IMG/VR virus record: IMGVR_UViG_3300042465_000302
Span: 1 to 27,600 of that record
Strand: one strand, 5' to 3'
DNA length: 27,600 nucleotides
From: a virus
Shown here: in pieces, positions 9,616 through 27,420 of the stretch
How the letters are laid out: the number at the start of each line of letters is the position of its first letter
Numbering within the stretch: the stretch's first letter is position 1
Notes under the pieces: model-generated
Seen by the model: only the letters and a program-made list of their open reading frames with translations
Database searches by the model: none
Told to the model about the DNA's origin: nothing
Translations under genes and position numbers: made by a program

Positions 9616-10251
9616 TCACGGGGGGAGCGCAGAGACAAATGTCATTGTCGCCACTACAGACTGCGTAGACGGCTTGGTTGGCGTTCCGGAAGCGGCAAGG
9701 TGCTGAATGGACACATCGGTGTTGGGAACAGACCAATAGATTTCGATGTACTGGCCCGCCGTCATACTTAGAAAATAATTCCAACCAATAATTGAGTGTC
9801 CGTCCGTACCTCCGTGGCTACCCGGAATAGATACAAAGCCAGTCGAACCCGGTATATTTACCCCATTTTGACGCAACCAAATGTATACATCTTGAACATT
9901 ACTATTTGCGTTTGTAAACTGCGTACTAAACTGTAAGTTGTATATGCCAGCCGTTGCCACTGTAATTTTAGAAGTTGCAATACTTACACCATTGGCAAAA
10001 TCCGTGGTGTTTAACGTCATCAAGGTGGCGGTGTTAGCGGTGGTGGTCTGATCTTGATCGCTGGAAAATGCGCCATACGGAACCGACAAAGTTCTTAACT
10101 GCCCCAGAATGTTGTCCACCTGATTGAAGTACAGGCGCAGAACGTCAGCAAACTGATCGTGGTAGCGCTTCTCGTAGTCCGTCGGAGCGGTGGGCAGGCG
10201 CGGCGCGACGACCCGGTTGAGTTCAAACTCAGATGTAACGATCTGGGTCAT
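9616..10251 (-). CDS. Small tail/virion protein with C-terminal C1q/TNF-like jelly-roll domain
   Basis: This 211-residue protein overlaps the upstream gene by one base (TGATG). Residues 1-55 are helical ('DYEKRYHDQFADVLRLYFNQ', then 'VDNILGQL') and probably anchor or trimerise. From about 65 on the sequence is beta-rich, with hallmarks of the C1q-like jelly roll: 'VATAGIYNLQFSTQF', 'VYIWLRQNGVNIPGS' and 'AGQYIEIYWSVPNTDVSI'. Jelly-roll trimers of this kind serve as receptor-binding or capsid/tail decoration proteins in phages. The product lies among core structural genes rather than in the main fibre block, so it may be a head or tail decoration protein. Confidence 0.75.
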   Translation of the reverse strand: MTQIVTSEFELNRVVAPRLPTAPTDYEKRYHDQFADVLRLYFNQVDNILGQLRTLSVPYGAFSSDQDQTTTANTATLMTLNTTDFANGVSIATSKITVATAGIYNLQFSTQFTNANSNVQDVYIWLRQNGVNIPGSTGFVSIPGSHGGTDGHSIIGWNYFLSMTAGQYIEIYWSVPNTDVSIQHLAASGTPTKPSTQSVVATMTFVSALPP

Positions 10252-12413
10252 CAGCGTCTTCCATCAGGACGGATATCAATGGCCGGCACACCCAACTGCC
10301 AGTTCACGCCCAAGCCGTCGGAGCTAACTTTGAACGCCATCTGGCGACCACGGATGCGGGTGTAAATGATCTCGGTGAACTGCTGCACCGTGTAGTTGCG
10401 CTGGGCTTGAAAGTTCTGCGTGCTGGTCACCGTCGGCGTATCCGCCGTGCCGTAGTTGGAGCCGGGGTTCTGGCGCGGGCGCAGCGTGAACGTCACCTGC
10501 GGGTTGTTGACGTAGGAGCCATCGAACGTAATGTCCGGGATCATGCGCCACGCAAATCCGTAGTTGTGCCCATCACCGATGTTGAAGTCGGCAGACTGGA
10601 TGTACGCACTGATCGGGCTAGGCGGGTTGGTGGTGCCGTCGTCTACGCCATTCTCGTGGTAGACCAACTGGTTACCGTAGGTTGTGGCCACCGGGAAGTC
10701 ACGCAGCGGCGAATCCAGCCATGCGGTACGCGACAGATTGCCGTAGGACCAGATGCGCTCAAGGTGGTTGTAAACGACGTAGCGGTCAATCACCGTAGAG
10801 TTGGCGGAACAGTAGTACCACCAGATTTCGTTGTAAGCCTCATTGGTGCCCGCAATAAACTGATACTGCTGTTGAAGGTTGATGTCGCCAAAGATGTATT
10901 GGCGCAAGGGGCAGTACAGGGTTTCCACACGACCCGAGTACATGTAGAACTTATCCAGCCCCATCCAGTACGTGATGTTGGCTGCGGTTGCAACAGCGTT
11001 GGGGCCGGCAACAGAAGTGTTGCTACCCAGAATCTGAAAGCCCCAAGTAAACGGCGGGCCAAGATACTGCATGGAATAAATCGCAGCATCCGTCCAGACC
11101 AAGATCTCCTGACGGGTTTGCTGGTGGGCAACGATGCTGGAGCCGGTGGACAGGCGATAGCTGCCGGCCTGATTGGTGGCCGACGGGGTCCAAGTGGCGT
11201 AATCTTCCTGATCCGACCAGCGGACCAGAAGAGGATCAAGCTCAGTAAGGCCGTAGTCGTTGCAACCAAACGCAATCACAAACCGCGAGGCGTCAGAGAC
11301 CAAGACGGCGTTACAGATACTGGGGCAGCCAGCATCCGTCTGGTACGCACCCGAGCTTGTGGGAGAGAGCAGCACCGCCCTGTCATAGATTGTTGGGTTG
11401 GGGTTAACCTTCCACAGGTAGAGCGCTCCCCCGCGAGGGTTGATGATCAGGTCTTGACCAAAGTTGGTCTGGCTCCACAGACGCAACTGCACGCCAACGC
11501 CCGATGTTGCCGACTCGCCCCAGCCGGTTGCGTTGCCGTATTGGTTAACAACGGTGCCGTCTGCGTGCGCCACAGCGGTACTACCCACGCCTCGGGTGCA
11601 ACCAGTGAAAGTTGTGCCGGTTTTGCCGGAGTACGTGATGTACTCACCCTCGATGCCGATGACGCCAGACGCTGCAAACCCAGTGGTGGAAACAACCGTG
11701 ATGGTCGTGGCGCTGTCGTTGAGTGCGCCGTTTAGCGTCGTCGTCGCAGCAATCGTAACTGTACCGCCGTATCCACCAGCACCCCAACCAGTGAGTGACG
11801 CATAAATTTCTTGGCCGATGTCGATTTGATAGCTGAACGTCGCAGCGCCAGTGGTTCCAGAGGACGTGGCAGGAGAGCTAACCGTGATGCTGTAGGTGGA
11901 CGAATCAATATAGGTGATGCGGAACTCTTTGTTTAGCGCAGAGGCAGGGATGCCGTTGACTGCACCACCCACACCAGAGATTGTGACAAAGTCACCATTA
12001 CCAGCGCCATAGCCCGGATCGTTGACAATAACAGTGGTAGAGCCGTTGACGGTCGTGAAGGCGTTAGCCGCAATCACGTTTACATCACGCAGTGGCGTGA
12101 CATCGTAGAAGTTACCGCCGTTGGACTGCTGGATGTAATATTTCAGGTTCGTACCCAAACCCATCAGGTTGTAGCCTGCAAGATTCACCCAGTTCCACAA
12201 AGAACGGCAAATGCCCCAGAATGATCCAGTCGGCGGGGGCAAAGACGTACCGTTGTTGTAATAGCCGCCGGTATCCCGCACCCAGCCGCCGAGCTTCTCC
12301 GGGTAGCCCGAGCGAAAACGCACCTTGTCCATCTCGAACCAAGTGCCTTCGTTAGCCAGCGTTGTGGATTCTCTGTTTACACCGGGCTTGAGCTGGAGTT
12401 TTTGCAGCGGCAT
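10251..12413 (-). CDS. Large beta-rich virion structural protein (possible tail/stabilisation protein)
   Basis: The 720-residue protein starts at ATG 12413 with AAAGGGG five bases upstream. The N-terminus 'LQLKPGVNRESTTLANEG', followed by 'FEMDKVRFRSGYPEKLGGW', is a signature I associate with a conserved structural protein of podovirus-like aquatic phages. Residues about 117-195 and 217-295 look like two small beta insertions; the second has 'TTLNGALNDSATTITV', 'GEYITYSGKTGTTFTGCTRG' and 'AHADGTVV', a motif recurring in phage virion proteins. The rest is Trp/Tyr-rich and could form a beta propeller ('WSDQEDYATWTP', 'LVWTDAAIYSMQYLGPPFTW'). It could be the functional equivalent of the P22 gp10 packaged-DNA stabilisation protein. 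That is a guess from composition and position, not from aligned residues. Confidence 0.72.
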   Translation of the reverse strand: MPLQKLQLKPGVNRESTTLANEGTWFEMDKVRFRSGYPEKLGGWVRDTGGYYNNGTSLPPPTGSFWGICRSLWNWVNLAGYNLMGLGTNLKYYIQQSNGGNFYDVTPLRDVNVIAANAFTTVNGSTTVIVNDPGYGAGNGDFVTISGVGGAVNGIPASALNKEFRITYIDSSTYSITVSSPATSSGTTGAATFSYQIDIGQEIYASLTGWGAGGYGGTVTIAATTTLNGALNDSATTITVVSTTGFAASGVIGIEGEYITYSGKTGTTFTGCTRGVGSTAVAHADGTVVNQYGNATGWGESATSGVGVQLRLWSQTNFGQDLIINPRGGALYLWKVNPNPTIYDRAVLLSPTSSGAYQTDAGCPSICNAVLVSDASRFVIAFGCNDYGLTELDPLLVRWSDQEDYATWTPSATNQAGSYRLSTGSSIVAHQQTRQEILVWTDAAIYSMQYLGPPFTWGFQILGSNTSVAGPNAVATAANITYWMGLDKFYMYSGRVETLYCPLRQYIFGDINLQQQYQFIAGTNEAYNEIWWYYCSANSTVIDRYVVYNHLERIWSYGNLSRTAWLDSPLRDFPVATTYGNQLVYHENGVDDGTTNPPSPISAYIQSADFNIGDGHNYGFAWRMIPDITFDGSYVNNPQVTFTLRPRQNPGSNYGTADTPTVTSTQNFQAQRNYTVQQFTEIIYTRIRGRQMAFKVSSDGLGVNWQLGVPAIDIRPDGRR

Positions 12414-14137: not shown

Positions 14138-14598
14138 GACATGGCCTGTTTAACGATGAAGATGATGATGACACCAATGATGACGACGCAAATTGCACCA
14201 CCAACGATTTGCGCCATGAGTAGCCGCTGGGCAACAACACGCTTGCGCTCAGCCGCAGCGATACGTTCGGCCTTTTCCCGGGCCTGTTTGATCTTCATCC
14301 GCTCTTTGAGCATCATCTCCCAGAGTTCTGGGTAGCCGCCGTAGACCAGCATGTGTTTGAGTTGCTCCTCAGATTCACGCAATTGGTTGGCCTGCATGAC
14401 GATCTCCATCGCCCTGCCGGTATCTGATTTGCCGGACTTGCCTGCGTCGTTGGCGGCCTTTTGAACGGCATCTCGGGCGTCAAAGAAACGGCTGAACTCC
14501 CCGACAAGGCCGTTAACGTCCTTGCCTAATTTAATGGCCTTTTGTATGCCAGCCACCGCAGCTTGCGCGGCAGCAAATGCGGTGAACGGATCGATCAT
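14134..14598 (-). CDS. Small coiled-coil protein with C-terminal membrane anchor, unknown
   Basis: The 154-residue protein opens with an Ala-rich amphipathic helix (1-25), has a basic coiled-coil-like helix at about 95-125 ('MMLKERMKIKQAREKAERI', then 'AAAERKR') and ends in a hydrophobic span at about 129-149 followed by only a few residues. This is a tail-anchored topology, with the bulk probably in the cytoplasm. It sits two bases after the oxygenase gene and overlaps the next membrane protein by GTGA. It belongs by position to the lysis/membrane cassette. No enzyme or spanin lipobox motif is visible, so no function is proposed. Confidence 0.7.
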   Translation of the reverse strand: MIDPFTAFAAAQAAVAGIQKAIKLGKDVNGLVGEFSRFFDARDAVQKAANDAGKSGKSDTGRAMEIVMQANQLRESEEQLKHMLVYGGYPELWEMMLKERMKIKQAREKAERIAAAERKRVVAQRLLMAQIVGGAICVVIIGVIIIFIVKQAMS

Positions 14599-14600
14599 AG

Positions 14601-15095
14601 TTAGCCAAACTCAGGGTACCCCACAGGCTTTTTGGCCCAAGGATTAACTGCAACTGACATACGGGTTCCCGTATATTCCTCTACCCCATGCAAGATGCCG
14701 GGGGAAAAAACAACCATTCTGTTGGTGATCGGCTTGACGGTAATAGATTCCGTCATGAATGCGCCGCCAGTCACATTTACATCAGCGTAGTACACGATGC
14801 TGCAAAGCGGATGAGCCACCTCACCGGTGGTGTTTTGCAGGGCCTCGTCTTTATCAATATGCCAGTCCGGGCGAGTGCCGTAGTGCGCCCAGTACTCACA
14901 CCCAACCATGGAGGTTAGGTCAAAGAACTTGGAGGCCGCCTTTACCAGCAGCGCCATGGGCGATTGATCATCCTGAATCCCGGCTAGGGTGCCGGGCTGC
15001 CATTTCATGGCTCGGGCCTGATCGCTGGACGAAAAGAATCCCACCACCGCAGAGCGGTGAGCGTCGTCAAGCACATTATCAAGCACGATCAGCAT
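14601..15095 (-). CDS. 2-oxoglutarate/Fe(II)-dependent oxygenase (prolyl-4-hydroxylase-like)
   Basis: The 164-residue protein has a complete predicted metal triad and cosubstrate residue: H79-x-D81 in 'PDWHIDKDE', H136 in 'PGILHGVEEYTG' and R145 in 'TRMSVAVNPW'. It fits the double-stranded beta-helix core 'CSIVYYADVNVTGGAF' and 'NRMVVFSPGILHG' of the P4H/PiuC-like class. Length is that of a minimal catalytic domain. It would use O2 and 2-oxoglutarate to hydroxylate an unknown substrate in the cytoplasm. The start overlaps the preceding oxygenase gene by seven bases. It is the last of three related genes. Confidence 0.85.
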   Translation of the reverse strand: MLIVLDNVLDDAHRSAVVGFFSSSDQARAMKWQPGTLAGIQDDQSPMALLVKAASKFFDLTSMVGCEYWAHYGTRPDWHIDKDEALQNTTGEVAHPLCSIVYYADVNVTGGAFMTESITVKPITNRMVVFSPGILHGVEEYTGTRMSVAVNPWAKKPVGYPEFG

Positions 15096-15649
15096 TTGTT
15101 GTAAATCAACGCTAGGGTTAAACGATAGAACGGCGCGATATGCGACTGCGGACGGATGGTGTGCGGGATCTTGGCGTCAAACGCAATCAAGCGGTTTGGC
15201 GTGTAGGAGCTGGCGAACACTACCTCTTTGATTGGCTCGTCATAGAACAGCGTCTCTCCGTGCCAGCCGTCGCGCCACTCCAGATTGACGTAGTACAGCA
15301 GCACCTTGTCTTCTGGGTGGGCGTGGACGAAGTTGGCGTCCGACGGGGTGGACAGATTCATGACGCACTTGGTCAGGGTAAACCCCTCCATCTCTTGGCC
15401 GACAGGCGTTGCCTTGAGCTTGGGGACTAACTGGATGCGCTCAATGTCTTCCGGGGAGTACAGGGCGTGTAAGAACTGGTGCTTGCTGTTCTCCACGATA
15501 TTGCCGTCGGCCCAGCCGATCCGGTACATGGACTTCTGTGCAAAGGCGTACAGGTTGCTCCTGTATTCCAAATCAAACACGTTGTCGTAGACCCGCAGCT
15601 TGCGCCCGTTGTCTACCGTCACCTCGCGGATCACGCTGTTTGAAAGCAC
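15089..15649 (-). CDS. 2OG-Fe(II) oxygenase-like protein with altered first metal motif
   Basis: I use GTG 15649 (186 aa) because GAGG sits seven bases upstream; a GTG at 15634 would give GTGA coupling but lacks such a site. The core 'VLLYYVNLEWRDGWHGETLF' (116-135), 'PNRLIAFDAKIPHTIRPQS' (151-169, H163) and 'FYRLTLALIY' (R176) is typical of phage 2OG oxygenases that carry GETLF. The first metal pair is not a plain HxD: the site reads 'VHAHPED' with H109, H111 and E113, so HxE or HxH may bind iron. Substrate unknown. It overlaps both neighbouring oxygenase genes. Confidence 0.8.
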   Translation of the reverse strand: MLSNSVIREVTVDNGRKLRVYDNVFDLEYRSNLYAFAQKSMYRIGWADGNIVENSKHQFLHALYSPEDIERIQLVPKLKATPVGQEMEGFTLTKCVMNLSTPSDANFVHAHPEDKVLLYYVNLEWRDGWHGETLFYDEPIKEVVFASSYTPNRLIAFDAKIPHTIRPQSHIAPFYRLTLALIYNKC

Positions 15650-16161
15650 TCAAGCACCTCGCTGTATTTGGTCTTCGTGAAAGAGAACGTGAGCATACGA
15701 CGAGATTTACCGGGAACCAAGTCCACCGAATGGGGTACAGAGGTATCCATCAGCCACACATCGTTTGTTGCAGCGCAAAACTCTTCCACGTACTCTGAGG
15801 TGCGGCTTTCCTTGTCCCAGTGATAGAACTTGGTCACCTCGCCGTGGGTGTCGAGGTAGACGTTGATGCCGCAGGTCTTGTTTAAATCCACATGCGCAGG
15901 AAGCACGGGGTCAACTGCGTCTATGGCCGGCAGCTCAAGTAAAAATACTTGTGGTCTTTCCAGCTCCAGTAGCGCCGCAGGAAGCTGCGACACAAATTCT
16001 TCCGCGTTTAAAACGCTCAATGTCTCGGTATAAGGGATGGAAGTCCCGTCGAGATTGCGTGCGTACTTTTGCACGCGGTAGTACTTTTGATGCGGCGCAA
16101 GCAGCTCTTCCCGAAACTGGGACAGATCAATGTTGATCGGCAGCGCCGTGGCGTAATTCAT
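15631..16161 (-). CDS. 2OG-Fe(II) oxygenase/aspartyl-hydroxylase-like protein
   Basis: The 176-residue protein has H90-x-D92 in 'PAHVDLNKTCGINVYL', followed by 'KFYHWD' and then 'NDVWLMDTSVPHSV' (H144) and 'SRRMLTFSF' (R154/R155), the order expected for a double-stranded beta-helix iron enzyme with an Asp/Asn-hydroxylase flavour. It differs strongly from the two oxygenases downstream, so this is not a recent tandem duplication. Coupling to the cupin-like gene is by ATGA at 16158-16161. Substrate and partner are unknown. Confidence 0.72.
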   Translation of the reverse strand: MNYATALPINIDLSQFREELLAPHQKYYRVQKYARNLDGTSIPYTETLSVLNAEEFVSQLPAALLELERPQVFLLELPAIDAVDPVLPAHVDLNKTCGINVYLDTHGEVTKFYHWDKESRTSEYVEEFCAATNDVWLMDTSVPHSVDLVPGKSRRMLTFSFTKTKYSEVLECFQTA

Positions 16162-16983: not shown

Positions 16984-17859
16984 TTAAGCTGCTGGACCTT
17001 GCCGCGTGCCGGTCGCGGTCCACGTAACAAAACTATTACCAACGATGTAGAAGCCGGCTGCACCGCCTGCACCGCCCGGACGGGGGTTGGCACCGCCAGT
17101 TGCCGCACCGTTTGCACCGTTGGCTCCACGACCACCACCAGCACCGCCACCGATGCCTTGGAAGTCGCCGGGGTTGCCTGCGCCACCCGCACTGTCTGTT
17201 CCGTTGTTGCCGGGGAAAGCGCCGCCACCACCGCTTCCGGGGTTAAAGCCTGCACCGCCACCACCGCCGCCACCCCAACCGGAACCACCTTTGCTTGGCG
17301 TCCAGCCAGAACCACCCCCGCCACCACCGCCACCACCGGCAATCACGTTGTTGTTCTGGATGGTCGTGGCCCGGTTGATGTACAGAGCGTTACCGGCATT
17401 GGTGCCGGGGTTGCCCCCGCTTTGAGCGGCAAACTGAGAATCACCGCCGTTACCGCCCATGCCCTCGATGACGCCGTTGTTGATGATGGTGACGGTATCC
17501 CCAGCGTTAAACGAGTTGGTCACCAGCATGGCGTATGTGCCGGTCGAAGTGCTGCCGACAAACACCCCACCGTTCACCGTGACTTGAATGTCAGAGATGC
17601 CGGCGATGTACGTGCCACCCCGGTTGGCGTACACATCGTAGTTGTACGTAGAGGAGGAGATGGTCAGCGGGATGAAGACGCGCTTGACCGTGCCGTAGAA
17701 GTTGCTGATCGAGATGGCCCCGGAGGTGGGAACCGTCGTGTTGTTGGAGGTTACAAACGCACCCCCACGGTAATACTCAGACATGCTGATGGGGTTAGAC
17801 CCCCCGAACTCAGTCTGTATCTGGGTAAGCGCCAAGGGGCCAGAAGAAGGCAGAGCCAT
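16984..17859 (-). CDS. Glycine-rich tail adhesin (Gp38-like polyglycine domain)
   Basis: The 291-residue protein has the N-terminal phage signature 'ALPSSGPLALTQIQTEFGGS' and 'ISMSEYYRGG', then 'VPTSGAISISNFYGT', a beta middle with 'GTYIAGISDIQVTVNGGVFV', and from about residue 135 to 275 a series of glycine runs separated by short variable loops ('GGGGGGGGGSGW', 'GGGGGGGAGFNPGSGGGG', 'GGARGANGANGAATGG'-like stretches). Such glycine motifs in T-even Gp38-type adhesins pack as polyglycine II helices and expose loops that contact the receptor. The C-terminal 'GFYIVGNSFVTWTATG' closes the domain. The start is firm: AAGGAG lies at 17865-17870. Likely a tail-tip receptor-binding protein. Confidence 0.82.
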   Translation of the reverse strand: MALPSSGPLALTQIQTEFGGSNPISMSEYYRGGAFVTSNNTTVPTSGAISISNFYGTVKRVFIPLTISSSTYNYDVYANRGGTYIAGISDIQVTVNGGVFVGSTSTGTYAMLVTNSFNAGDTVTIINNGVIEGMGGNGGDSQFAAQSGGNPGTNAGNALYINRATTIQNNNVIAGGGGGGGGGSGWTPSKGGSGWGGGGGGGAGFNPGSGGGGAFPGNNGTDSAGGAGNPGDFQGIGGGAGGGRGANGANGAATGGANPRPGGAGGAAGFYIVGNSFVTWTATGTRQGPAA

Positions 17860-17864
17860 AACCG

Positions 17865-17870
17865 CTCCTT
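17865..17870 (-). promoter_or_regulatory. Strong Shine-Dalgarno of the Gly-rich adhesin gene
   Basis: AAGGAG on the minus strand partly overlaps the stop codon of the upstream fibre gene and sits five bases before ATG 17859. It is one of the best ribosome sites in the window and suggests high expression. Confidence 0.65.
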
Positions 17871-18669
17871 AAGGCGTACCAAATGCAGTCACATCGTTGG
17901 CAGACACGATTGCGCCGTTGGTGTTGATGGACGCAACCGTCACGCCGCCGTATTTAAACTGTAGCTTGCCGCCGGACTCCGTGATCGTCCAGTTGGTTGT
18001 CGTCAGAGTACCGGCACCAATCGCCACGTTGTCCGTGCTCAGGGTGTTGGTGTTGGCGTTGTAGGCCAGACCGCTATCGATGAACGGTGACTGGTTGCCC
18101 GTAGCCTGCGCACCCACCAGCACCAAGGAAGTCGTGGTGTCAGAGCTGGTCGTCGCGCTGATGTTGATGTTGGTGGCGTTGGTTGCCGTGGTAGCAGTGG
18201 TGGCGGTATCTGCGTTACCCGTTACGTTGCCCACCAACGTGCCGATGATGTGGGTGTTCTGGAAGTAGAAGTTGGTTCCCTCGGTCCAGACCGTCATGGT
18301 CTTACCGGCGGGGATAGCCACCCCAGCACCTGCGGCGGTCGTGTTACCGATCACCGTGGAGTTGTAGATGGTGGCGGTGTAGCTGCTGGCGTTGTAGATG
18401 ACGTAGGTCTTCTCTGCCGGGGGTGCGTACACCGCAAAGTTAGCCCCGGTGGTCGTTGTCAGGGCAATCGTCTGCTGGCGGGCCTCATCTGCGGCACCGT
18501 TTAAAGCGGTGAAGGCTTGGTTGGCCGAGATGACGGAGACAGACACATACCCCGCAATGGCCGACTCAACTAGCGTGCCCAGATTGGTGTTGGTCGTGTT
18601 ACCCCACGTACCGGCTTGATCGCCCGTCGTGATCAGTTCGATCCGCAGGCTGGGGGAATAGGTGCTCAT
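17869..18669 (-). CDS. Tail fibre protein with conserved virion-attachment N-terminus
   Basis: The 266-residue protein begins with 'YSPSLRIELITTGDQAGTWG' and 'NTTNTNLGTLVESAIAGY', a recognisable N-terminal domain of many aquatic phage fibres that probably attaches to the virion. A beta region (60-140) with 'TYVIYNASSYTATIYN' follows, then a Thr/Ala collar-like repeat 'GNVTGNADTATTATTATNAT' at about 146-165, and a C-terminal shaft or head ending 'GGVTVASINTNGAIVSANDV'. It may form the base fibre to which other appendage proteins of this block bind. GGAA lies about seven bases before the ATG. Confidence 0.78.
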   Translation of the reverse strand: MSTYSPSLRIELITTGDQAGTWGNTTNTNLGTLVESAIAGYVSVSVISANQAFTALNGAADEARQQTIALTTTTGANFAVYAPPAEKTYVIYNASSYTATIYNSTVIGNTTAAGAGVAIPAGKTMTVWTEGTNFYFQNTHIIGTLVGNVTGNADTATTATTATNATNINISATTSSDTTTSLVLVGAQATGNQSPFIDSGLAYNANTNTLSTDNVAIGAGTLTTTNWTITESGGKLQFKYGGVTVASINTNGAIVSANDVTAFGTP

Positions 18670-18680
18670 TGTGAGGTTCC

Positions 18681-19586
18681 TTATTGGGAATTGGGTATAT
18701 TCTGCCAGCCCGGGTTCTGGGCGTCATCTATCCCAGTCCATCCCGGCGTCTGCGTGTCGGTGATATTGACCCAGTCAGGGTTCTGGGTGCTGATGATCTT
18801 GATCCAGCCACCGACTCCAAAGCGGTCCGCCAAGACAACGTTCTCGGTTATCGCCACCGCAAATGCGGCCTGCACGGTCGAGATGTCCGCGCTATTCAGG
18901 TTCTCAGTGATGCTGACAAGCAGGTTTACAACCGCCGTCTCAACAGATGCAACTCCAAAGTTCTCAATGATGGAGTCAGTGTAAACGCTAATGATGGTGC
19001 TCAGGTCCGCAACGGAAATACCCTCGGAGACCGCCTGCGCAAACTGGGCGGAGATGGCCCGGAAGTCGTTCATCGTCACCGCCTCAGACACCGACAGGGG
19101 GAACTGCGCAGTGATAACCCGTACATCGTCCAGATTGGCGTTCTCGGTGATGGACTGGGAGAAGTTGGACTGCTGGGTGCTGAAGTCGGCCACCTCAATG
19201 ATGTCCTCAGTGCGGGACTGCAAGGCGGCAAAGAAAGGCACCGGGTCATCTGCCAGAACTGCGTTCTCCGTCACGGACTGGGCGAACTGGGCCGCGATGG
19301 CCGGGGTGTCGTTTAAATTGCTGTTCTCGCTGATGGATTGCAGGAACGTCGAGGCTTGGGTGCTGAAGTCGTCGGACGTGATGACTTCGTTGATGCTGCC
19401 AAAGAACAGCCCCGACCCGGTTACCTCGATGTCGCTCTCGGTGATGACCTCAGTGATGGACTGCAAGAAGTTCGATTGCTGGGCGCTGGCGTCGTCGGAG
19501 TTCAGGTTTTCCGACAAGGAAAGGACAAAGTTCGTCCCTGCCAGCGAGGCAAACGGTGACTGGGCGAAGCTTGCAATTCCGAACAT
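18681..19586 (-). CDS. Tandem-repeat tail protein (12 x about 20-residue repeat plus Trp repeats)
   Basis: Nearly the whole 301-residue protein is repetitive. From residue 21 to 256 there are twelve units of 20-21 residues with pattern S-[IV]-[TS]-E-N-x-x-[LV]-x-D-x(5)-A-x-F; examples are 'QSVTENAVLADD', 'QSITENANLDDV' and 'VSITENLNSADI'. The last part (261-301) has Trp at 261, 272, 283 and 294, exactly 11 apart, in units W-x-x-I-x-[DS]-[TA]-Q-[NT]-P-[GD]. Regular repeats of this kind usually build an elongated beta shaft or solenoid; here it would be a fibre spacer. No enzymatic motif. It follows the 51-aa small gene after two bases. Confidence 0.75.
   Translation of the reverse strand: MFGIASFAQSPFASLAGTNFVLSLSENLNSDDASAQQSNFLQSITEVITESDIEVTGSGLFFGSINEVITSDDFSTQASTFLQSISENSNLNDTPAIAAQFAQSVTENAVLADDPVPFFAALQSRTEDIIEVADFSTQQSNFSQSITENANLDDVRVITAQFPLSVSEAVTMNDFRAISAQFAQAVSEGISVADLSTIISVYTDSIIENFGVASVETAVVNLLVSITENLNSADISTVQAAFAVAITENVVLADRFGVGGWIKIISTQNPDWVNITDTQTPGWTGIDDAQNPGWQNIPNSQ
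18818..19526 (-). repeat. In-frame tandem repeat array, about 60-63 bp unit, 12 copies
   Basis: The DNA of the gene at 18681-19586 contains a recurring 'TCGGTGATG/TCAGTGATG'-like plus-strand word about every 60 bases, encoding the S-I-T-E-N motif. Copies have diverged at codon level but keep the reading frame, which points to selection on the protein repeat rather than recent expansion. Confidence 0.65.
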
Positions 19587-19588
19587 GA

Positions 19589-19744
19589 TTAATTATCGGC
19601 GGGCAGGGGTTGGTTACCTTCTTCCAGCCACTTCTGAAACTCAGGGTAGTCAGCCGTGCAGGTCAGGCGGCACTTGCCGTCATCGTCAATACGGGCAAGA
19701 ATTTGTGGTTCGCCTTCAACGGCGGGAAGCATTTTGAAAATCAT
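19589..19744 (-). CDS. 51-aa small protein of fibre module, KWLExGNxPLPAD family
   Basis: The reading starts ATG 19744, overlapping the stop of the 365-aa fibre (ATGA), with GGAG nine bases upstream inside that fibre's last codons. The product begins 'MIFKMLPAVEGEPQILARID', continues 'DDGKCRLTCTADYPEFQKWL' and ends 'EEGNQPLPADN'. It closely matches the 55-aa product at 20838-21005. The 'WL..GN.PLPAD' ending is reminiscent of short proteins beside phage tail fibre genes, which are often fibre assembly factors. Two Cys, no membrane segment. Function inferred only from linkage. Confidence 0.75.
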   Translation of the reverse strand: MIFKMLPAVEGEPQILARIDDDGKCRLTCTADYPEFQKWLEEGNQPLPADN

Positions 19745-20838
19745 AGTTCAGCACTCCAGCCAAGGTATGCATTAGTGTTTGCTGCGCGAAGAAACCCAGC
19801 AAGCCCCGCAGTCTGTCCTGATGCCACAGTTAAGTTGACTTGCCACATACTCGTTGATGCATCGTTATGGGTTGGAACAGAGCTTGATGCTCGTGAAGCA
19901 CCACCAGTAAGCACCAAGTAGTCGCTTGCCGTTCCGGATTGCTCCAAAGCTGTCGGGGCGCTTCTCATGGTTACCGGAAAAACGCCGTTAGCATTGCCTG
20001 CTGTTGCCGTGGTTGCCCATGCTGTTACCGAAATAATTTGGCTGCTGGCAGATGGCGTGATCCGGTAGTAGTACCGCTGGCACTGGATCAACTGCCGCCC
20101 GTAGTCAAGGCGCTCAAACTGCTCGGCCACAGTGCCCGTTTCCAGTTGCACCCCGGTGATCTGCCATGTAGCCGCATTAGTTGCCATCAGATTGGTTGCG
20201 CCAGTTGCAGACAGTAGCTGTGACGCGGCCCAAGCACCTGCGGTTCCTGCAAACCCAGACGCCACGCCAAGTCCCCAATAAACACGGATGCCAGTGTTAT
20301 TGTCTGTAGCCCATGTGCCAGCAGTGTCGCCGGCAATCGTGACCGTCTTCTGCTCCCAAGTGTTGGCCGCATTAATGGTGTAGGTGAACGGATACGAACG
20401 ATTCACGCCGTTGTTGCTCAGAGCGCCACCAAAAGTTCCCGTCACGCTGGATTTGGCCCAAAACGACAGAGTAACTGTGGCAGCACTTGCAGAACCCCAC
20501 GCAAGATCAGCCGTGTTAAACCCTTCAATAAACTGAGCGGCGTAGTAAAGGTCGGAGCCAGAAAGTGAAGAGTCAATCGTTGTGACGGTGACCCTTACTG
20601 AATTGGTGAACCCCGCAGGAGCGTCGGCAACCTGCTGCGCGGTGAACACGCCCGAAGATGACACTCCAGAAAAACGGAACCTATCCACCGGATAAAAAGC
20701 CCCTGCGGTATTTACAGTCACCGCCGCCCCGGCGTTCCTCTGATCAATCCGCATGTCACCATTGATGATGCGGTTACGGAACCCCTGTGCGTTGGCTTCG
20801 CTACTGAGCAGCGCGGCGGATACTTGGGTGAGCGGCAT
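19741..20838 (-). CDS. Tail fibre/appendage protein, paralogue A of RNRIINGxMxIDQRN family
   Basis: The 365-residue protein has 'GFRNRIINGDMRIDQRNAGA' at 19-38, an aromatic 'FYPVDRFRFSG' strand, 'YYAAQFIEGFNTADLAWGSA', 'VTLSFWAKSSVTGTFGGALS', 'ANTWEQKTVTIAGDTAGTW', and 'YGRQLIQCQRYYYRI' at about 245-259. These features recur at the same spacing in the two other paralogues of this window. The beta-sandwich-like middle resembles a carbohydrate-binding module. The C-terminal 100 residues differ between paralogues. It ends 'WSAEL' and couples by ATGA to the 51-aa gene. Likely a trimeric receptor-binding fibre. Confidence 0.78.
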   Translation of the reverse strand: MPLTQVSAALLSSEANAQGFRNRIINGDMRIDQRNAGAAVTVNTAGAFYPVDRFRFSGVSSSGVFTAQQVADAPAGFTNSVRVTVTTIDSSLSGSDLYYAAQFIEGFNTADLAWGSASAATVTLSFWAKSSVTGTFGGALSNNGVNRSYPFTYTINAANTWEQKTVTIAGDTAGTWATDNNTGIRVYWGLGVASGFAGTAGAWAASQLLSATGATNLMATNAATWQITGVQLETGTVAEQFERLDYGRQLIQCQRYYYRITPSASSQIISVTAWATTATAGNANGVFPVTMRSAPTALEQSGTASDYLVLTGGASRASSSVPTHNDASTSMWQVNLTVASGQTAGLAGFLRAANTNAYLGWSAEL

Positions 20839-21005
20839 CAGTTGGTCTCCGGTTCATCAGCAGGCAGCGGGGTGTTCCCGGCTTCCAGCCACTTCTGAAA
20901 CTCAGGGTATTGATCGGTACAGGTCAGGCGGCACTTGCCATCGTCGTCGATGCGGGCGTAGATTTGTTGCTGATCGTCAACTGGCGGAAGCATTTTAAAA
21001 ATCAT
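20838..21005 (-). CDS. 55-aa small protein of fibre module, KWLExGNxPLPAD family
   Basis: ATG 21005 overlaps the end of the 359-aa fibre (ATGA); an upstream in-frame extension to 21020 lies within that fibre and is less likely. The product starts 'MIFKMLPPVDDQQQIYARID', then 'DDGKCRLTCTDQYPEFQKWL' and 'EAGNTPLPADEPETN'. About four fifths of positions match the 51-aa paralogue. The stop overlaps the next fibre's start as TGATG. Being inserted after each fibre, it is a candidate fibre-specific chaperone or connector. Confidence 0.78.
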   Translation of the reverse strand: MIFKMLPPVDDQQQIYARIDDDGKCRLTCTDQYPEFQKWLEAGNTPLPADEPETN

Positions 21006-22081
21006 AGTTCTGCACTCCATGCAAGAAATGCGTTTGCGTTAGCTGCTCTGATTTGCCCACCAAAACCCGTAGTAAGCCCAGAAGCAACGGTCAGGTTGAC
21101 GGAGGCACAATCAATAGTGGAAATTCCAAAAGCGGGCACTGAGTTACACGCTGGATTTGCAGCACCAGCTATAACCATGTAGTCAGCCGCAGTTCCTGAC
21201 TGTTCTAGGCTGAGAGGTCGAGTCCTCATAGATGTCGGAAAACTAACTAATGCAGTTGCAACAGTGGTCGAGTCACAAAAAAGAGACCCCATCCGCGTTC
21301 CGGTTGCTTCGCTTTTAAGCCTGTAATAATACCGCTGGCACATGATCAGCTCACGGCCGTAGTCCCGGTACTCGAACGGGGTGGCGGAGGTGCCGCGCTC
21401 AAGCTGGACGCCGGTGATGTAGAAGGTGGCGCCATTGGTGCCGACTACGGATGTTGCGCCAGTTGCGGACAAATAGTTTGCGCCTGCCCAAGCCCCCGCC
21501 GTGCCACTGCTGTTCGACCCAACTCCAAGGCCAAACCAAAGTGCCAAACCCTTGCCGTTTGTCGTTAGCCAAGTGCCAGTCGTGTCGCCAGCAATGGTGA
21601 CAGTCTTTTGCTCCCAAGTGTTCGCGGCACTGATGGTGTAAGTGAACGGGTAACTGCGGTTTTGTGCGCTGTTAGTTACCGAGCCACCAAAAGTTCCCGT
21701 CAAACTGGAACGCACTTGAAATGACAGCGTAACTGTTTGAGCACTAGCAGTGCCCCACCCAAGGTCAGCAACGTTCAAGCCTTCGATAAACTGAATCAAT
21801 ACAAAAGCGTCAGTCGATAGGACAGAATATGCTGACGACGATGTGGTGAGCAGTGAGTTAATAAATCCCGTAGGAGCAGTAGAAGACTGCTGTGAAGTCA
21901 GTTTTGACGCTTGGCTGACATAGTAGTTCCAGCGATCAACTACGTAGGTAAATGCCCCGTTAGCAGGCGTCACACTCGCCCCAGCATTCCTCTGGTCAAT
22001 GACCATCGCCCCGTTGATGATCCGGTTGCGCCACGAGACGTTGTTGGTGCCCGACTGGGCGATGCCTACTGCTGCGGTCAT
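21002..22081 (-). CDS. Tail fibre/appendage protein, paralogue B of RNRIINGxMxIDQRN family
   Basis: The 359-residue protein has 'SWRNRIINGAMVIDQRNAGA' at 16-35, 'VVDRWNYYVSQASKLTSQQS', 'LIQFIEGLNVADLGWGTASA', 'VTLSFQVRSSLTGTFGGSV', 'NTWEQKTVTIAGDTTGTW' and 'YGRELIMCQRYYYRL'. It shares its middle with the 365- and 379-aa proteins, while the last 90 residues diverge and the end 'WSAEL' is shared with paralogue A. Its Shine-Dalgarno (GGAG) lies inside a 13-codon mini-ORF just upstream. Likely trimeric carbohydrate-binding appendage; no catalytic motif seen. Confidence 0.78.
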   Translation of the reverse strand: MTAAVGIAQSGTNNVSWRNRIINGAMVIDQRNAGASVTPANGAFTYVVDRWNYYVSQASKLTSQQSSTAPTGFINSLLTTSSSAYSVLSTDAFVLIQFIEGLNVADLGWGTASAQTVTLSFQVRSSLTGTFGGSVTNSAQNRSYPFTYTISAANTWEQKTVTIAGDTTGTWLTTNGKGLALWFGLGVGSNSSGTAGAWAGANYLSATGATSVVGTNGATFYITGVQLERGTSATPFEYRDYGRELIMCQRYYYRLKSEATGTRMGSLFCDSTTVATALVSFPTSMRTRPLSLEQSGTAADYMVIAGAANPACNSVPAFGISTIDCASVNLTVASGLTTGFGGQIRAANANAFLAWSAEL

Positions 22082-23320: not shown

Positions 23321-24460
23321 TTACAACTCCGCAGATGCTGTGACATGGATGGCGGCGTTTGTCCCGCTAGTAGAAGTGGCGTTGTTGTAAACAGTCACGC
23401 CGCGAGTGCCGGGGTTAGAGGTGGCGGCTGCCACAGTTCCTGCGGTGTTGAGAAACCAAGAAGACCCGGCCGCCGACGGGTTATAAGTTGTCACCACACT
23501 CGGCCCAGTCCGCATCTCTACCGGGAAGAACCACGTTGCAATTAGGCCAACGCTCACACCAGTGCCGGAGCCATTTAGCGTAAGCAATGCGCCACCTTGT
23601 CCGGCGTTAGACGCCGGGGCTGTGCCTTGGCTGAACGTCATGCAAAAATACCGCTGGCACAGCATCAGCTCACGGCCATAGTCGATCTGTTCAAACGGTG
23701 TGGCTACGCTTCCAGCTTCCAGTTGAACGCCGGTGAGGTTAAAGGTAGCGCCGTTGGTGCCGCTGAGCTTTACATCGCCAGTTGCACCCCGATAGTCTGC
23801 GGCTGCCCACGCTCCAGCAGTTCCAAGCAGGGTCGATCCCATTCCAAGATCAAACGAAACCCGCACTCCGCCAGTGTTATCCGTACTCCATGTGCCGGTA
23901 GTTGGCCCGGCGATGGTAACGGTTTTAAACTCAAACGTATTCGCTGCGCTGATAGTGAAGCTGAACGGGTACGAGTAATCCTGTGCCGAGTTTTGTAGCG
24001 CCCCGCCAAACTGCCCAGTCAAAGAACTGCGAACCCAAAACGACAGTGTGATAGCAGAAGCGCCTGCTGCGCCCCAGCCAAAATCGGCAATATTAAAGCC
24101 CTCAATGATTTGAGTCAGGGCGCAGCGGTCGGCAGACCCTGCTGCGGCGGCTGTGGTTGTCGTAATAAGCAAAGATCTATTAAAACCTGCTGGCGCGGTG
24201 CTAACTTGTTGACCAGAAAAGGCCATTGACCCGTTTTCAAAGACTTGCCACCTGTCTGTTAAATAGGTGGTCGTGCCGTTTGATATAGACACACTCGCCC
24301 CGTTATTCCGCTGGTCGATGACCATGTTGCCATTGATGATCCGGTTCCTGAACCCAAGGCTGTTGACCGCAGAGATGTTGTTGCCGTTGACGGACAGGGT
24401 CGAGGCTGTGACGCCAAGCCCGGAGGTCAGGCCGTTCGTGCCTATGGTGCTTACGGCCAT
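23321..24460 (-). CDS. Tail fibre/appendage protein, paralogue C of RNRIINGxMxIDQRN family
   Basis: The 379-residue protein has an extra N-terminal stretch 'STIGTNGLTSGLGVTASTLS' (4-23) before 'GFRNRIINGNMVIDQRNNGA' (37-56). The shared body follows: 'TDRWQVFENGSMAFSGQQVS', 'ALTQIIEGFNIADFGWGAAG', 'ITLSFWVRSSLTGQFGGALQ', 'FEFKTVTIAGPTTGTW' and 'YGRELMLCQRYFCMTF'. The last 110 residues are specific and end 'TASAEL'. AAGGAG lies seven bases before ATG 24460, encoded within the end of the upstream S74 fibre. Likely a trimeric receptor-binding appendage. Confidence 0.78.
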   Translation of the reverse strand: MAVSTIGTNGLTSGLGVTASTLSVNGNNISAVNSLGFRNRIINGNMVIDQRNNGASVSISNGTTTYLTDRWQVFENGSMAFSGQQVSTAPAGFNRSLLITTTTAAAAGSADRCALTQIIEGFNIADFGWGAAGASAITLSFWVRSSLTGQFGGALQNSAQDYSYPFSFTISAANTFEFKTVTIAGPTTGTWSTDNTGGVRVSFDLGMGSTLLGTAGAWAAADYRGATGDVKLSGTNGATFNLTGVQLEAGSVATPFEQIDYGRELMLCQRYFCMTFSQGTAPASNAGQGGALLTLNGSGTGVSVGLIATWFFPVEMRTGPSVVTTYNPSAAGSSWFLNTAGTVAAATSNPGTRGVTVYNNATSTSGTNAAIHVTASAEL

Positions 24461-25425
24461 TACTGTGCTCCTTCAAGCGCGGCGATGCGGGCGGTCAGGG
24501 AGGTGATGAGGGCTTGCTGTTCCTGAATCGCAGCGGTCAGCGTGGCGACCAAGAAGCTGGTGTCGATGCCCTGATATTGAGGGTTGCCGTCAGCGTCCAC
24601 TGCATCCTTTGCACCGGTCACGCAGTCGGGGACAACTGCTTGCAGTTCGTGAGCAATGAAGCCCTCACCATCCGACCCATCCGCTTTCCATTTGTACGTC
24701 ACCGGCTTGAGGGCGGCAACGCGGGCCAAAGCTCCGGTCATGGGCGCAATGTTTTCTTTCAGTCGGTAGTCGGACGAGGTGTTATACGCGGTCGCACTAG
24801 TCGTGACGCTGATCGTGCCAACGGTTGTGTTGCTGCGCCTGATTGTTATTGCTGTGCCGTCGCTGCCTTGCCTATTAACTAGAAGCGCATCGCCATTACG
24901 GGTCAAAACTGCGCCGTAAGTTCCAAATTCACATCCGGCTGCAGTAGCGTCCGCTGCAGTTTTCCCCACCAGAAAGTTCCCGCTGGAGTCGAGCATAGCC
25001 CGCGCTGTGTTGCTTGTCCCAAAAACAAGCGGATACGCACCAGTCGTAGTGATCGCGGCGCTTTCCCCCGTAGGGCCACCAGACAGCAACGCACCTGAAT
25101 AGGCCGAACCCGAATAATCAATTTCCAGTGCGCGAGAACTGGAGTTCTGATCGTTATACAAGCGAAGGCTGGTATAGCTCGTGCTGCTGGTATTTCGCAA
25201 CATAGAAATGCTGCCGACCACTTCCAATCTGGTGGTGGGAGAACTCGTCCCAATCCCCACGTTGCCAGAACTATTGGCCGTGATCACATCCGCAGTGGTA
25301 GCCCCAGAGTTACCCACACCTAGACGCACCGTGCCGTCAGGCGTTGCGGGCTGATACAGCGTGAAGTTGTTGGTGGCAGTGACCGACTGGCCGACCTGTA
25401 CGTTGTTCGTTTTTAGGGTGCTCAT
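24460..25425 (-). CDS. Tail fibre with C-terminal peptidase S74 intramolecular chaperone (copy 2)
   Basis: The 321-residue protein has short beta repeats 'SSGNVGIGTSSPTTRLEVVG' (52-71) and 'LDSSGNFLVGKTAADA', typical of trimeric phage fibres. Residues about 216-321 are an S74 domain: 'YNTSSDYRLKEN' (S217-S218-D219, K223), 'LARVAALKPVTYKW', 'GEGFIAHELQAVVPDCVTG' and 'YQGIDTSFLVATLTAAIQEQ', then a coiled coil. This domain drives trimer folding and then cuts itself off at the serine. The end 'ALEGAQ' also encodes AAGGAG for the next gene. Start overlaps the C1q gene by ATGA with GAGGG four bases upstream. Confidence 0.92.
   Translation of the reverse strand: MSTLKTNNVQVGQSVTATNNFTLYQPATPDGTVRLGVGNSGATTADVITANSSGNVGIGTSSPTTRLEVVGSISMLRNTSSTSYTSLRLYNDQNSSSRALEIDYSGSAYSGALLSGGPTGESAAITTTGAYPLVFGTSNTARAMLDSSGNFLVGKTAADATAAGCEFGTYGAVLTRNGDALLVNRQGSDGTAITIRRSNTTVGTISVTTSATAYNTSSDYRLKENIAPMTGALARVAALKPVTYKWKADGSDGEGFIAHELQAVVPDCVTGAKDAVDADGNPQYQGIDTSFLVATLTAAIQEQQALITSLTARIAALEGAQ
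24468..24473 (-). promoter_or_regulatory. Ribosome binding site encoded in the S74 C-terminus (gene at 24460)
   Basis: The codons for Leu-Glu-Gly-Ala at the end of the S74 protein contain AAGGAG, seven bases before ATG 24460. The same arrangement occurs at 25981-25986 before ATG 25973. Confidence 0.6.
24471..24795. repeat. S74 chaperone-coding direct repeat, copy 2
   Basis: This 325-base stretch aligns without net length change to 25984-26308 and opens with the same 24-base word. By eye about four fifths of positions agree, with many synonymous differences. It encodes the last part of the S74 domain. Confidence 0.8.
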
Positions 25426-25973
25426 GCGGCCCTCGCCAAAAATGCTTGAAAGGATGTTTGTCGAGGAGCGCCCCCAGACACAGTTCCGGCATTATTGCCT
25501 TGCACATATATCTCAACATAATCAGTTGTGCCGTTTAAATACATTAGCGCATACACGCCGCAGCTGTCGCTATTAGTGGCATTTCCTGTATTAGAAAACC
25601 CTTCCATATAAGAGCTTCCATTTTTGTAGATGTATGCGGTGTATCGATTACTGTAAGCATCAACCGATATGCTTGAATTAATTAAATAATATCCCGCCAC
25701 ATTGGGGGTAAATCTGTAATTAGTAACGGAGTCATAGCAACCCGCCGTATCGAAATCTTCAGTGCCAAACTGCACCTTTGTAAATGTAGCCGCACTGATT
25801 GATTGTGAGCTTCCACGGTACGCAAAGAACGCAGGGCCAGTCCCCGCAAAGGTAGACGCAGTGCTCACCAAGGTGCCGGTGTTATCCGGCAGGGTCAGGG
25901 TCTGGTTACTGGCCGTGCTCGGCTCTTGCAGCGTAACACTGCCACCGCCGGAGGAGTTGAGTTTCAGGCTCAT
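25422..25973 (-). CDS. Short fibre/decoration protein with C1q-like domain
   Basis: The 183-residue protein has a short phage-type N-terminus 'LNSSGGGSVTLQEPSTASNQ' followed by 'TLTLPDNTGTLV', then a C1q-like jelly roll from about 40: 'GPAFFAYRGSSQSISAATFT', 'KVQFGTEDFDTAGCYDS', 'YRFTPNVAGYYLINSSI', 'AYIYKNGSSYMEG' and 'ALMYLNGTTDYVEIYVQGN'. It resembles the C-terminal domain of the 342-aa fibre. Likely trimer that binds sugars or a partner fibre. AAGGAG sits seven bases before the ATG at 25981-25986. Confidence 0.82.
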   Translation of the reverse strand: MSLKLNSSGGGSVTLQEPSTASNQTLTLPDNTGTLVSTASTFAGTGPAFFAYRGSSQSISAATFTKVQFGTEDFDTAGCYDSVTNYRFTPNVAGYYLINSSISVDAYSNRYTAYIYKNGSSYMEGFSNTGNATNSDSCGVYALMYLNGTTDYVEIYVQGNNAGTVSGGAPRQTSFQAFLARAA

Positions 25974-26938
25974 TGTGCGGCTCCTTCAAGCGCGGCGATG
26001 CGGGCGGCTTGACTATCTACGATTCCTTTGAGTTCCTGAATTGCAGCGGTCAGCGTGGCGACTAGGAAGCTGGTGTCGATGCCTTGGTAGACGGGGTTGC
26101 CTTCCGCATCTACTGCATCTTTCTCGCCAGTCACACAGTCAGGGACAACTTCAGCCAACTCGTGAGCAATAAAGCCTTCGCCTGCGGAGCCATCGACCTT
26201 CCACTTGTATGTGCAGGGCTTCAAAGCGGCAACGCGGGACAGTGCGCCTTGCATTGGCTGCACGTTCTCTTTCAAGCGGTAGTCGGATGATGTGTTGTAC
26301 GAAGTCGCAGTCGTGGTTACATCAATTGAGCCAACATCTGTGTTGTCGCGCTGCAATCGAATAACCTCGCCGTTTCCGTTCCACCGCGCAGCAATAATTG
26401 CGTGTGAATTATTTACGCCAATTAAGGCGCCACCAGCGCTTAATTGTGAACCGTAAGTACCAGAGGAGTGGGGGTTGGCTGTCGTCGTCCCCACCAGCAG
26501 GTTCCCGCTGGCATCCAGCGTCATCGCCTGCGTGAACGTGATCGCGTTGCCTGCGGTGCCGGAGGCAGCGTAGTACCACTTGTGGACGTTTGCATCTATG
26601 GTGTAAAGACCAGCAGCAGAGTTGGCAACATACTTGTAGCCCGAGTTGTAATAGGCGTTATTCGCCAGATTCGCTTCAGAGCCAATCCCAAAAAACATCG
26701 ACCTAGCGCCAATTTGAATCGCTTTATAGAGGCTGTCCCACGCACTCGGCGTGACCCCGATGCCGACGTTGCCCGAGCTATCAATCCGCATGACCTCCGT
26801 ACCACCTTCAGCAAATGCGATGGTGTCAGCAGCGGGGAAGAAAATCCCGGTGTTGGAATCCGTGCCACGGATCGCTGGCGTTGCAGCAGAGCCGTCAACA
26901 TCAGACAGGCCGCTATCTCCAGAAAGAATTAAGCTCAT
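25970..26938 (-). CDS. Tail fibre with C-terminal peptidase S74 intramolecular chaperone (copy 1)
   Basis: I use ATG 26938 (322 aa; ATGA overlap with the previous stop) rather than a TTG at 26950. The body has 'GDSGLSDVDGSAATPAIRGT', 'TGIFFPAADTIAFAEGG', 'EVMRIDSSGNVGIGVTPSAW' and 'LDASGNLLVGTTTANP'. The S74 domain begins at the same residue numbers as in the other copy: 'YNTSSDYRLKEN' (S217-S218-D219, K223), 'LSRVAALKPCTYKW', 'GEGFIAHELAEVVPDCVTG' and 'YQGIDTSFLVATLTAAIQEL'. Mature protein would lose about 100 residues after trimerisation. Likely a receptor-binding fibre that differs from copy 2 mainly in its body. Confidence 0.92.
   Translation of the reverse strand: MSLILSGDSGLSDVDGSAATPAIRGTDSNTGIFFPAADTIAFAEGGTEVMRIDSSGNVGIGVTPSAWDSLYKAIQIGARSMFFGIGSEANLANNAYYNSGYKYVANSAAGLYTIDANVHKWYYAASGTAGNAITFTQAMTLDASGNLLVGTTTANPHSSGTYGSQLSAGGALIGVNNSHAIIAARWNGNGEVIRLQRDNTDVGSIDVTTTATSYNTSSDYRLKENVQPMQGALSRVAALKPCTYKWKVDGSAGEGFIAHELAEVVPDCVTGEKDAVDAEGNPVYQGIDTSFLVATLTAAIQELKGIVDSQAARIAALEGAAQ
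25984..26308. repeat. S74 chaperone-coding direct repeat, copy 1
   Basis: Partner of 24471-24795 with equal length and orientation. Recombination between the two would delete the C1q gene and swap fibre bodies while keeping an intact chaperone. Confidence 0.8.
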
Positions 26939-27420
26939 GCCACCACCCAAGTAGAACCAGAAGAAACAGTCACTGTGACGCCGGATGCAATCGAAACTGG
27001 CCCGGCGCTCAGGCCATTATCCCCGGCAATGATTGTGTAGTTGGTGCTGATCGTGGCGCTGTTGGCAATGATCCCGCTGGTGACACGAAGCACGCCCGCC
27101 GTCACATCCAACCCCGTAGCCAGCGCCGACGTACCCACCGTACCCTGACTGGGGGCAAGCACCTGCGTGATCGGGCTGGTGTAGTAGACGTAGATGTTGT
27201 TCGTGCCCGAGGGCGGGGCCGATGTGAACGTGATCGTGTTGCCGCTGATCGTGTAGGCATCACCGGGCTTTTGCGGCACGTTCTCCACCACCGCCTGCAC
27301 CTGCGCTACAGACGCCACCGGGCGAGACAGCGTAAATGCGGTCGTGCTGGCATTGCCGCTGAAGAAATCAACAGCCGGGATGAATCCCTGCGTGGTGGGG
27401 GTGTTGCCAATAAACGCCAT
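26935..27420 (-). CDS. Short tail fibre protein with MAFIGN N-terminus
   Basis: The 161-residue protein starts 'MAFIGNTPTTQGFIPAVDFF', then one beta domain 'STTAFTLSRPVASVAQVQAV' through 'TFTSAPPSGTNNIYVYYTSP' that is the same kind found twice in the 342-aa fibre. A linker 'SQGTVGTSALATGLDVTAGV' follows, and the end 'AGDNGLSAGPVSIASGVTV' is a short beta prism-like stretch common in phage fibres. It has no receptor-binding head of its own, so it may serve as an adaptor that links other fibres to the virion. Coupled by ATGA to the S74 fibre. Confidence 0.75.
   Translation of the reverse strand: MAFIGNTPTTQGFIPAVDFFSGNASTTAFTLSRPVASVAQVQAVVENVPQKPGDAYTISGNTITFTSAPPSGTNNIYVYYTSPITQVLAPSQGTVGTSALATGLDVTAGVLRVTSGIIANSATISTNYTIIAGDNGLSAGPVSIASGVTVTVSSGSTWVVA

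What the first reader, a model, noticed from the sequence alone, without database searches (positions are those of the whole stretch)
18681..19586. Protein built of twelve 20-residue S-[IV]-T-E-N repeats capped by 11-residue Trp repeats
A strict period of 20-21 residues runs over about 236 residues, then four Trp spaced exactly 11 apart. I do not recognise the 20-residue repeat as a named family. Two different periodicities in one 301-aa protein suggest an extended shaft followed by a binding platform.
Basis: seen in the sequence. Interest (0 to 1): 0.6.

Follow-up and report, generated by a model that had tools for sequence, protein, structure and literature searches.

The report
Modular phage tail repeat protein
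An aquatic phage carries a protein made of a short fixed start, a long run of 20-residue repeats and a run of tryptophan repeats; related phages swap the repeat type but keep the layout and almost always put the gene just before a tail-fibre gene, so it is probably a spacer or strut of the phage's attachment apparatus.

Summary
The gene is on the minus strand. It has 12 units (ten of 20 residues, two of 21) and four Trp exactly 11 apart; lag-20 identity is 63 against 19.4 in shuffles (0 of 1000 reach it). The motif name is loose: only 3 of 12 units read S-[IV]-T-E-N, but Glu 7 is in 367 of 368 units of the 32-row alignment. No Pfam, PHROGs, NCBIfam or PDB family fits. Relatives are common in IMG/VR and follow one plan: aromatic N-terminal tag, shaft, Trp cap. 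The shaft comes in three kinds with no detectable sequence similarity, yet a period of 20 or 22 is kept: 100 of 102 tag-selected or named proteins show 20; 103 of 108 cap-selected ORFs show 20 or 22. In 200 of 214 cases the next gene starts with one of three tail-fibre N-domains, and cap spacing goes with the kind (94 representatives: 10 of 10 and 78 of 78, 6 unclassified). Both AlphaFold models failed; the fold is open and virion location is inferred. Best reading: a swappable strut carrying or positioning the next fibre. Against strict dependence: in 9 of 12 named-phage loci that fibre domain has no cap gene before it.

The parts
18681..19586 (-). 301-aa tag-shaft-cap protein (P0001), pI 4.05, 37 Asp+Glu against 5 Lys+Arg
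19536..19586 (-). N-terminal aromatic tag, residues 1-17 (MFGIASFAQSPFASLAG), shared by proteins with other shafts
18804..19529 (-). shaft, residues 20-261: twelve 20/21-residue units with near-invariant Glu 7
18684..18806 (-). C-terminal Trp cap, residues 261-301: four Trp at spacing 11 (W..I...Q.P. type)
17869..18669 (-). next gene, 266 aa, starting 11 bases after the stop; its N-terminal domain (first ~130 residues; phrog_31104, unknown function) is the usual downstream neighbour of 11-spaced Trp-cap genes
16984..17859 (-). glycine-rich Gp38-like tail-fibre adhesin (PF05268, phrog_2056), same cluster
19741..20838 (-). upstream tail-fibre protein (phrog_4492, E 1.6e-55)
24460..25425 (-). tail-fibre protein with Peptidase_S74 intramolecular chaperone
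25970..26950 (-). second Peptidase_S74 tail-fibre protein
10251..12413 (-). packaged-DNA stabilisation / virion structural protein (phrog_3287), links the phage to phages such as DSL-LC04 and HTVC023P

Best explanation
The protein is a structural part of the phage's tail-fibre apparatus: a strut of three separable modules. Shown from sequence: (1) a ~17-residue aromatic N-terminal tag that also sits on unrelated proteins; (2) a shaft of 12 units of 20 residues, a period that is kept when the shaft sequence is replaced; (3) a Trp cap with its own period of 10 or 11; (4) a place directly before a tail-fibre gene whose N-domain type goes with the cap type. Inferred: the tag anchors the protein to the virion (tail), the shaft sets a distance, and the Trp cap at the far end either binds the host surface or holds the N-domain of the fibre encoded next. 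I think the spacer role is most likely, with the cap pairing with the next fibre slightly more likely than the cap binding the host directly.
For: Tail-fibre cluster on both sides (Peptidase_S74, Gp38-like adhesin, phrog_4492 fibres). Same place in named phages: Venkman gp51 (MT375522) lies between 'tail fiber' and 'tail collar protein' genes; MW202481 likewise has fibre genes around it. Tag reuse: L094, in the same slot (fibre genes before it, homologue of window 14134-14598 after it), carries the tag on a 103-aa protein with a tail-fibre domain (phrog_11355, E 3.9e-11). Period kept across shaft kinds: 100 of 102 tag-selected or named proteins (P0001 present twice) have 20, 40 or 60 as best lag, although profile comparison finds no similarity between the three shaft kinds. 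Independent selection by the cap alone: 103 of 108 ORFs have period 20 (36) or 22 (67), 97 with z>6, against 8 of 400 control ORFs. Gene order: the next gene carries one of three fibre N-domains in 200 of 214 and in 88 of 94 representatives under 50% identity; 10-spaced caps go with the MAKTK domain 10 of 10, 11-spaced caps with d1 or MALVL 78 of 78. Two TEN-shaft proteins with 10-spaced caps (L076, L189) have the MAKTK partner, so the partner follows cap rather than shaft there.
Against: I found no virion proteomics, structure or mutant for this phage; virion location is inferred from gene order. Reverse test: of 12 named-phage loci holding a partner domain, only 3 have a Trp cap just upstream, so the next fibre does not need this protein in general, and the pairing may be operon order inherited together. 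In the unreduced set 4 of 85 classified 10-spaced caps have a d1-like partner (L191, L192 and two LTGV-shaft ones; a distinct variant of the domain), and 14 of 214 have none of the three domains; in 7 of 36 TEN loci the next gene is instead a homologue of window 14134-14598. The cross-class cases that separate cap from shaft in this direction are only two. AlphaFold gave no fold. The tag's invariance is partly by construction, since the scan selected it.
Confidence: 0.68

Rival explanations
1. Terminal receptor-binding fibre: the Trp cap itself binds a host surface glycan or protein, the varying number of Trp repeats tunes avidity, and the downstream fibre is a separate adhesin.
For: Cap copy number varies (2, 3, 4, 6) while the shaft stays at 12 units; exposed aromatic repeats are common in glycan binding (recalled). 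L094 replaces shaft and cap by a tail-fibre domain in the same slot.
Against: The cap motif W..I...Q.P. is shared by phage contigs from many samples with different shafts, whereas receptor-binding tips usually diverge fast (recalled); cap type goes with the type of the next gene.
Confidence: 0.35
2. On the fold: the shaft is alpha-helical, not beta; each 20-residue unit is a helix from Asp 13 to Glu 7 plus a short extended loop.
For: Hydrophobic moment of the segment D13-E7 is 0.96 at 100 degrees against 0.32 at 180, and 0.71 against 0.06 in the diverse set (scales recalled, no significance test); the first AlphaFold model put helices there; weak matches to the helical OSCP family.
Against: All of that model's helical residues lie where pLDDT is low (no residue above 70, 11 of 301 above 50); the better model has no helix beyond three residues; over the whole unit neither 100 nor 180 degrees is significant (p 0.38 and 0.55), and the ASI shaft with the same period has beta-like alternation (p 0.004).
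Confidence: 0.3
3. The repeats are intrinsically disordered, an acidic flexible spacer.
For: Low AlphaFold confidence; pI 4.05.
Against: Strict period with almost no indels over ~240 residues in the 31 aligned relatives, near-invariant Glu 7 and regular hydrophobic positions; low confidence is also what intertwined fibres give in single-chain prediction (recalled).
Confidence: 0.12
4. Gene order only: the protein is a virion or secreted protein of another function (head fibre, decoration, lysis aid) that sits in the tail operon.
For: Partner domains occur without it in 9 of 12 named loci; in MW202462 a shaft-cap gene with another N-terminus lies far from the MAKTK gene, next to the stabilisation protein.
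Against: 200 of 214 have a fibre-type gene directly downstream and cap type goes with its kind.
Confidence: 0.15

Closest known systems
Venkman gp51 (MT375522, phage of OM43 strain H5P1), annotated 'putative E3 ubiquitin-protein ligase HERC6'
   Same: Tag (MYGLSAFSQSPYSALG), period-20 shaft, Trp cap, same place before a tail-collar fibre
   Different: ASI-type shaft without the Glu/Asp pattern; Trp spacing 10; other partner domain (MAKTK type)
DSL-LC04 protein at 59268-60398 (OR003939), 'hypothetical protein'
   Same: 11-spaced Trp cap; d1-type gene next
   Different: WG-type N-terminal tag (WGEGYWGQVPWG) and LTGV shaft of period 22
Viral fibre shafts with short repeats (adenovirus triple beta-spiral, T4 gp5 beta-helix, Orsay delta beta-bracelet)
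   Same: Short strict repeats forming a shaft between an anchor and a tip; a working analogy only
   Different: No sequence match in PDB; the bracelet repeat is 8 residues (passages of PMC7565637); fold not determined here

Membership tests
Phage tail-fibre apparatus | Gene lies in a tail-fibre gene cluster, also in relatives | tested here: met
Phage tail-fibre apparatus | Protein present in virions, on the tail | not testable with these tools
   no proteomics or imaging available
Phage tail-fibre apparatus | Modular exchange of domains behind a constant anchor | tested here: met
   tag with several different continuations; tag x shaft x cap combinations among representatives
Phage tail-fibre apparatus | Homotrimer | not testable with these tools
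   no multimer prediction offered
Triple beta-spiral shaft | Alternating hydrophobic pattern of beta strands in each repeat | tested here: inconclusive
   not significant for the TEN unit (p 0.55), significant for the ASI unit (p 0.004)
Triple beta-spiral shaft | Fold similarity to a solved member | tested here: inconclusive
   model too poor; one match, E 7.3, unrelated
Orsay delta beta-bracelet | 8-residue repeat (five-residue strand, three-residue loop) | tested here: not met
   period is 20; definition from passages of PMC7565637
OSCP / ATP synthase delta (PF00213) | Whole-protein score over the curated cut-off | tested here: not met
   P0001 15.9 bits against 22.3; a relative, L125, reaches 22.4, which I take as chance for a repetitive acidic protein
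Any PHROGs, NCBIfam or solved-structure family | Significant profile or sequence match | tested here: not met

The most novel reading that the evidence does not exclude
A widespread phage 'strut' class: the Trp cap is a docking plug for the N-domain of the next fibre, forming a two-piece jointed fibre, and three sequence-unrelated shafts are interchangeable because they have converged on (or been held to) the same 20/22-residue repeat, so phages swap spacers without breaking either joint.
Probability: 0.25. Interest if true: 0.75.

Novelty: new variant of a known kind. Interest (0 to 1): 0.55.

Why it matters
It gives a simple recognition rule (aromatic tag, period 20 or 22, Trp cap at 10 or 11) and a cultured model phage, Venkman, in which the role can be tested. 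If the cap docks the next fibre, it would be a modular joint between fibre parts.

Tried and rejected
Structure: AlphaFold on 301 aa with 32 rows and on residues 141-301 with 91 rows, many of them register-shifted segments (alignment, model); both unusable, and the PDB fold search of the second gave one match at E 7.3. Named-phage searches with P0001, L125 and L052 found nothing. Genome collection: no relative of A1; the cap pattern gave 34 stretches, of which I judge 3 (L413, L418, L429) real caps, all in MAGs, and 31 chance frames, so the class looks nearly absent from cellular genomes. Homology between shaft kinds: none by hhalign, with column-shuffled controls. OSCP similarity rejected (membership test). 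A tag search with 22 residues in named phages found only MW202481. Papers: searches listed nothing on such repeats (listings only); the library lacks most subscription journals.

Rows dropped: of 41 loci, 31 entered A1; 10 were left out (L003, L009, L018, L023 as copies; L037, L041 fragments; L038, L039, L040, L042 divergent, these four aligned in A2). Of 117 cap ORFs, 9 had too short a shaft. Of 232 pooled ORFs, 18 had too little sequence downstream. Reverse test: 12 of the 15 records were examined (H40, H48, H49 not fetched). The control counted 400 ORFs although it printed 480, and consists of open frames of all six frames, not annotated genes. Shaft classes were assigned by regular expressions of mine, and class sizes differ between for that reason. 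L001 is the window's own locus and is inside the TEN counts.

Full report
Where it lies. The window is a 27.6-kb virus record. The long minus-strand frames form a phage structural block: Peptidase_S74 fibres, fibre proteins of phrog_4492 and phrog_18673 and a Gp38-like adhesin, then a GH19-type lysis gene and a stabilisation-type virion protein related to those of phages DSL-LC04 and HTVC023P. The finding is one gene of this block, read on the minus strand at 18681-19586, with the next gene starting 11 bases later.

The observation. The protein has 12 units, ten of 20 and two of 21 residues, covering residues 20-261, and four Trp at 261, 272, 283 and 294. Lag-20 identity is 63 against 19.4 in shuffles, reached by 0 of 1000. 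The five-letter motif is only a tendency (3 of 12 units exactly); the firm feature is Glu 7 (367 of 368 units in 32 aligned proteins) with Asp 13 (289 of 368). Units in the same position of different proteins agree at 0.60, different units at 0.29, so the array is old, inherited as a whole and not reshuffled by recent duplication in this clade.

Relatives. A protein search of IMG/VR gave 41 loci. The close ones keep a shaft of 241-243 residues, while Trp copies are 2, 3, 4 or 6. One distant hit, L042 (L043 is the same contig), and four more (L044-L047) keep the N-terminal MFGIASFA..P[FY]A.L and the Trp cap but have a quite different LTGVxAxGxVG shaft. The tag is thus a separable module. It was also the search key, so its conservation is partly by construction.

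One period for three shafts. In 100 of 102 proteins of 140 aa or more the best lag is 20, 40 or 60 (exceptions: L115 with 41, DSL-LC04 with 22). Profile comparison finds no similarity between the three shaft kinds. Many of these carry another aromatic tag (GWGxGxWGxxxWGE), so tag, shaft and cap occur in several combinations.

The next gene. The 266-aa neighbour's N-domain is directly downstream in 25 of 36 tag-selected TEN loci with room, the window's own included, and in 51 of 102 cap-selected loci with room. With three profile families of fibre N-domains (d1 as in the window, MAKTK, MALVL; names are mine), 200 of 214 pooled ORFs have one next door: 11-spaced caps 100 d1, 15 MALVL, 0 MAKTK; 10-spaced caps 81 MAKTK, 4 d1-like, 0 MALVL. 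Among 94 representatives below 50% identity: 10-spaced 10 of 10 MAKTK, 11-spaced 78 of 78 d1 or MALVL, 6 unclassified, Fisher p 2e-13; the representatives are still related, so this p is only a guide. Two TEN-shaft proteins with 10-spaced caps (L076, L189) have the MAKTK partner, which points to the cap rather than the shaft as the correlated part. Against this, partner domains stand without a cap in 9 of 12 named-phage loci, often after internal virion or cell-wall hydrolase genes, so these domains can serve as fibre anchors on their own.

Named relatives. Venkman gp51 is the one in a cultured phage. From passages of PMC8163748: Venkman infects OM43 strain H5P1 and showed a short tail in electron micrographs, though loss of tail structures was not excluded. 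I saw no proteomics of it (passages only).

Mechanism. Shown: the modules, the period, the gene order and its correlation with the cap. Inferred: virion location, tag as anchor, shaft as spacer, cap as joint or as binding tip. Not known: the fold. Single-chain AlphaFold failed twice. Sequence periodicity suggests beta for the ASI shaft and leans to helix for part of the TEN unit; if both were true, different folds would share one period. I do not lean on it.

Novelty. Repeat shafts in viral fibres are a known kind; this is an undescribed variant in the libraries searched (Pfam, PHROGs, NCBIfam, PDB) and in the papers searched.

Noticed in passing
window 14601-16161, minus strand: Three short adjacent ORFs; the first (14601-15095) matches 2OG-Fe(II) oxygenase (PF13640, E 1.6e-6), the other two have no Pfam match. 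DSL-LC04 also has a 2OG-Fe(II) oxygenase in its tail cluster.
   Followed up: partly
window 1-5421, minus strand: 1807-aa open frame (cut by the window end) with a GP88 domain (E 1.1e-11) and a sub-threshold ADP-ribosyltransferase of polyvalent proteins.
   Followed up: no
L121 6015-6380 and L092, L108, L146, L149, L167: The same N-terminal tag on 120-122-aa proteins with a proline-rich linker and a charged C-terminal part (GGHFGFDEKKR...), followed by an open frame overlapping by about 4 bases; not a repeat protein.
   Followed up: partly
L094 3363-3674, minus strand: Same slot and tag, but the tag is fused to a tail-fibre domain that also occurs in the neighbouring 157-aa gene of that contig.
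   Followed up: partly
window 19741-20838, 21002-22081, 23321-24460: Three look-alike fibre genes (GFRNRIINGDM... / WRNRIINGAM... type) in one cluster.
   Followed up: no
L125 4703-6145 and L061 4375-6228: Longer shafts of about 20 and 27 units; L125 has near-identical neighbouring units at its start that look recently duplicated.
   Followed up: no
L413, L418, L429: The only three of 34 cap-pattern matches in bacterial and archaeal assemblies that look real; all in MAGs, perhaps misbinned phage contigs.
   Followed up: partly
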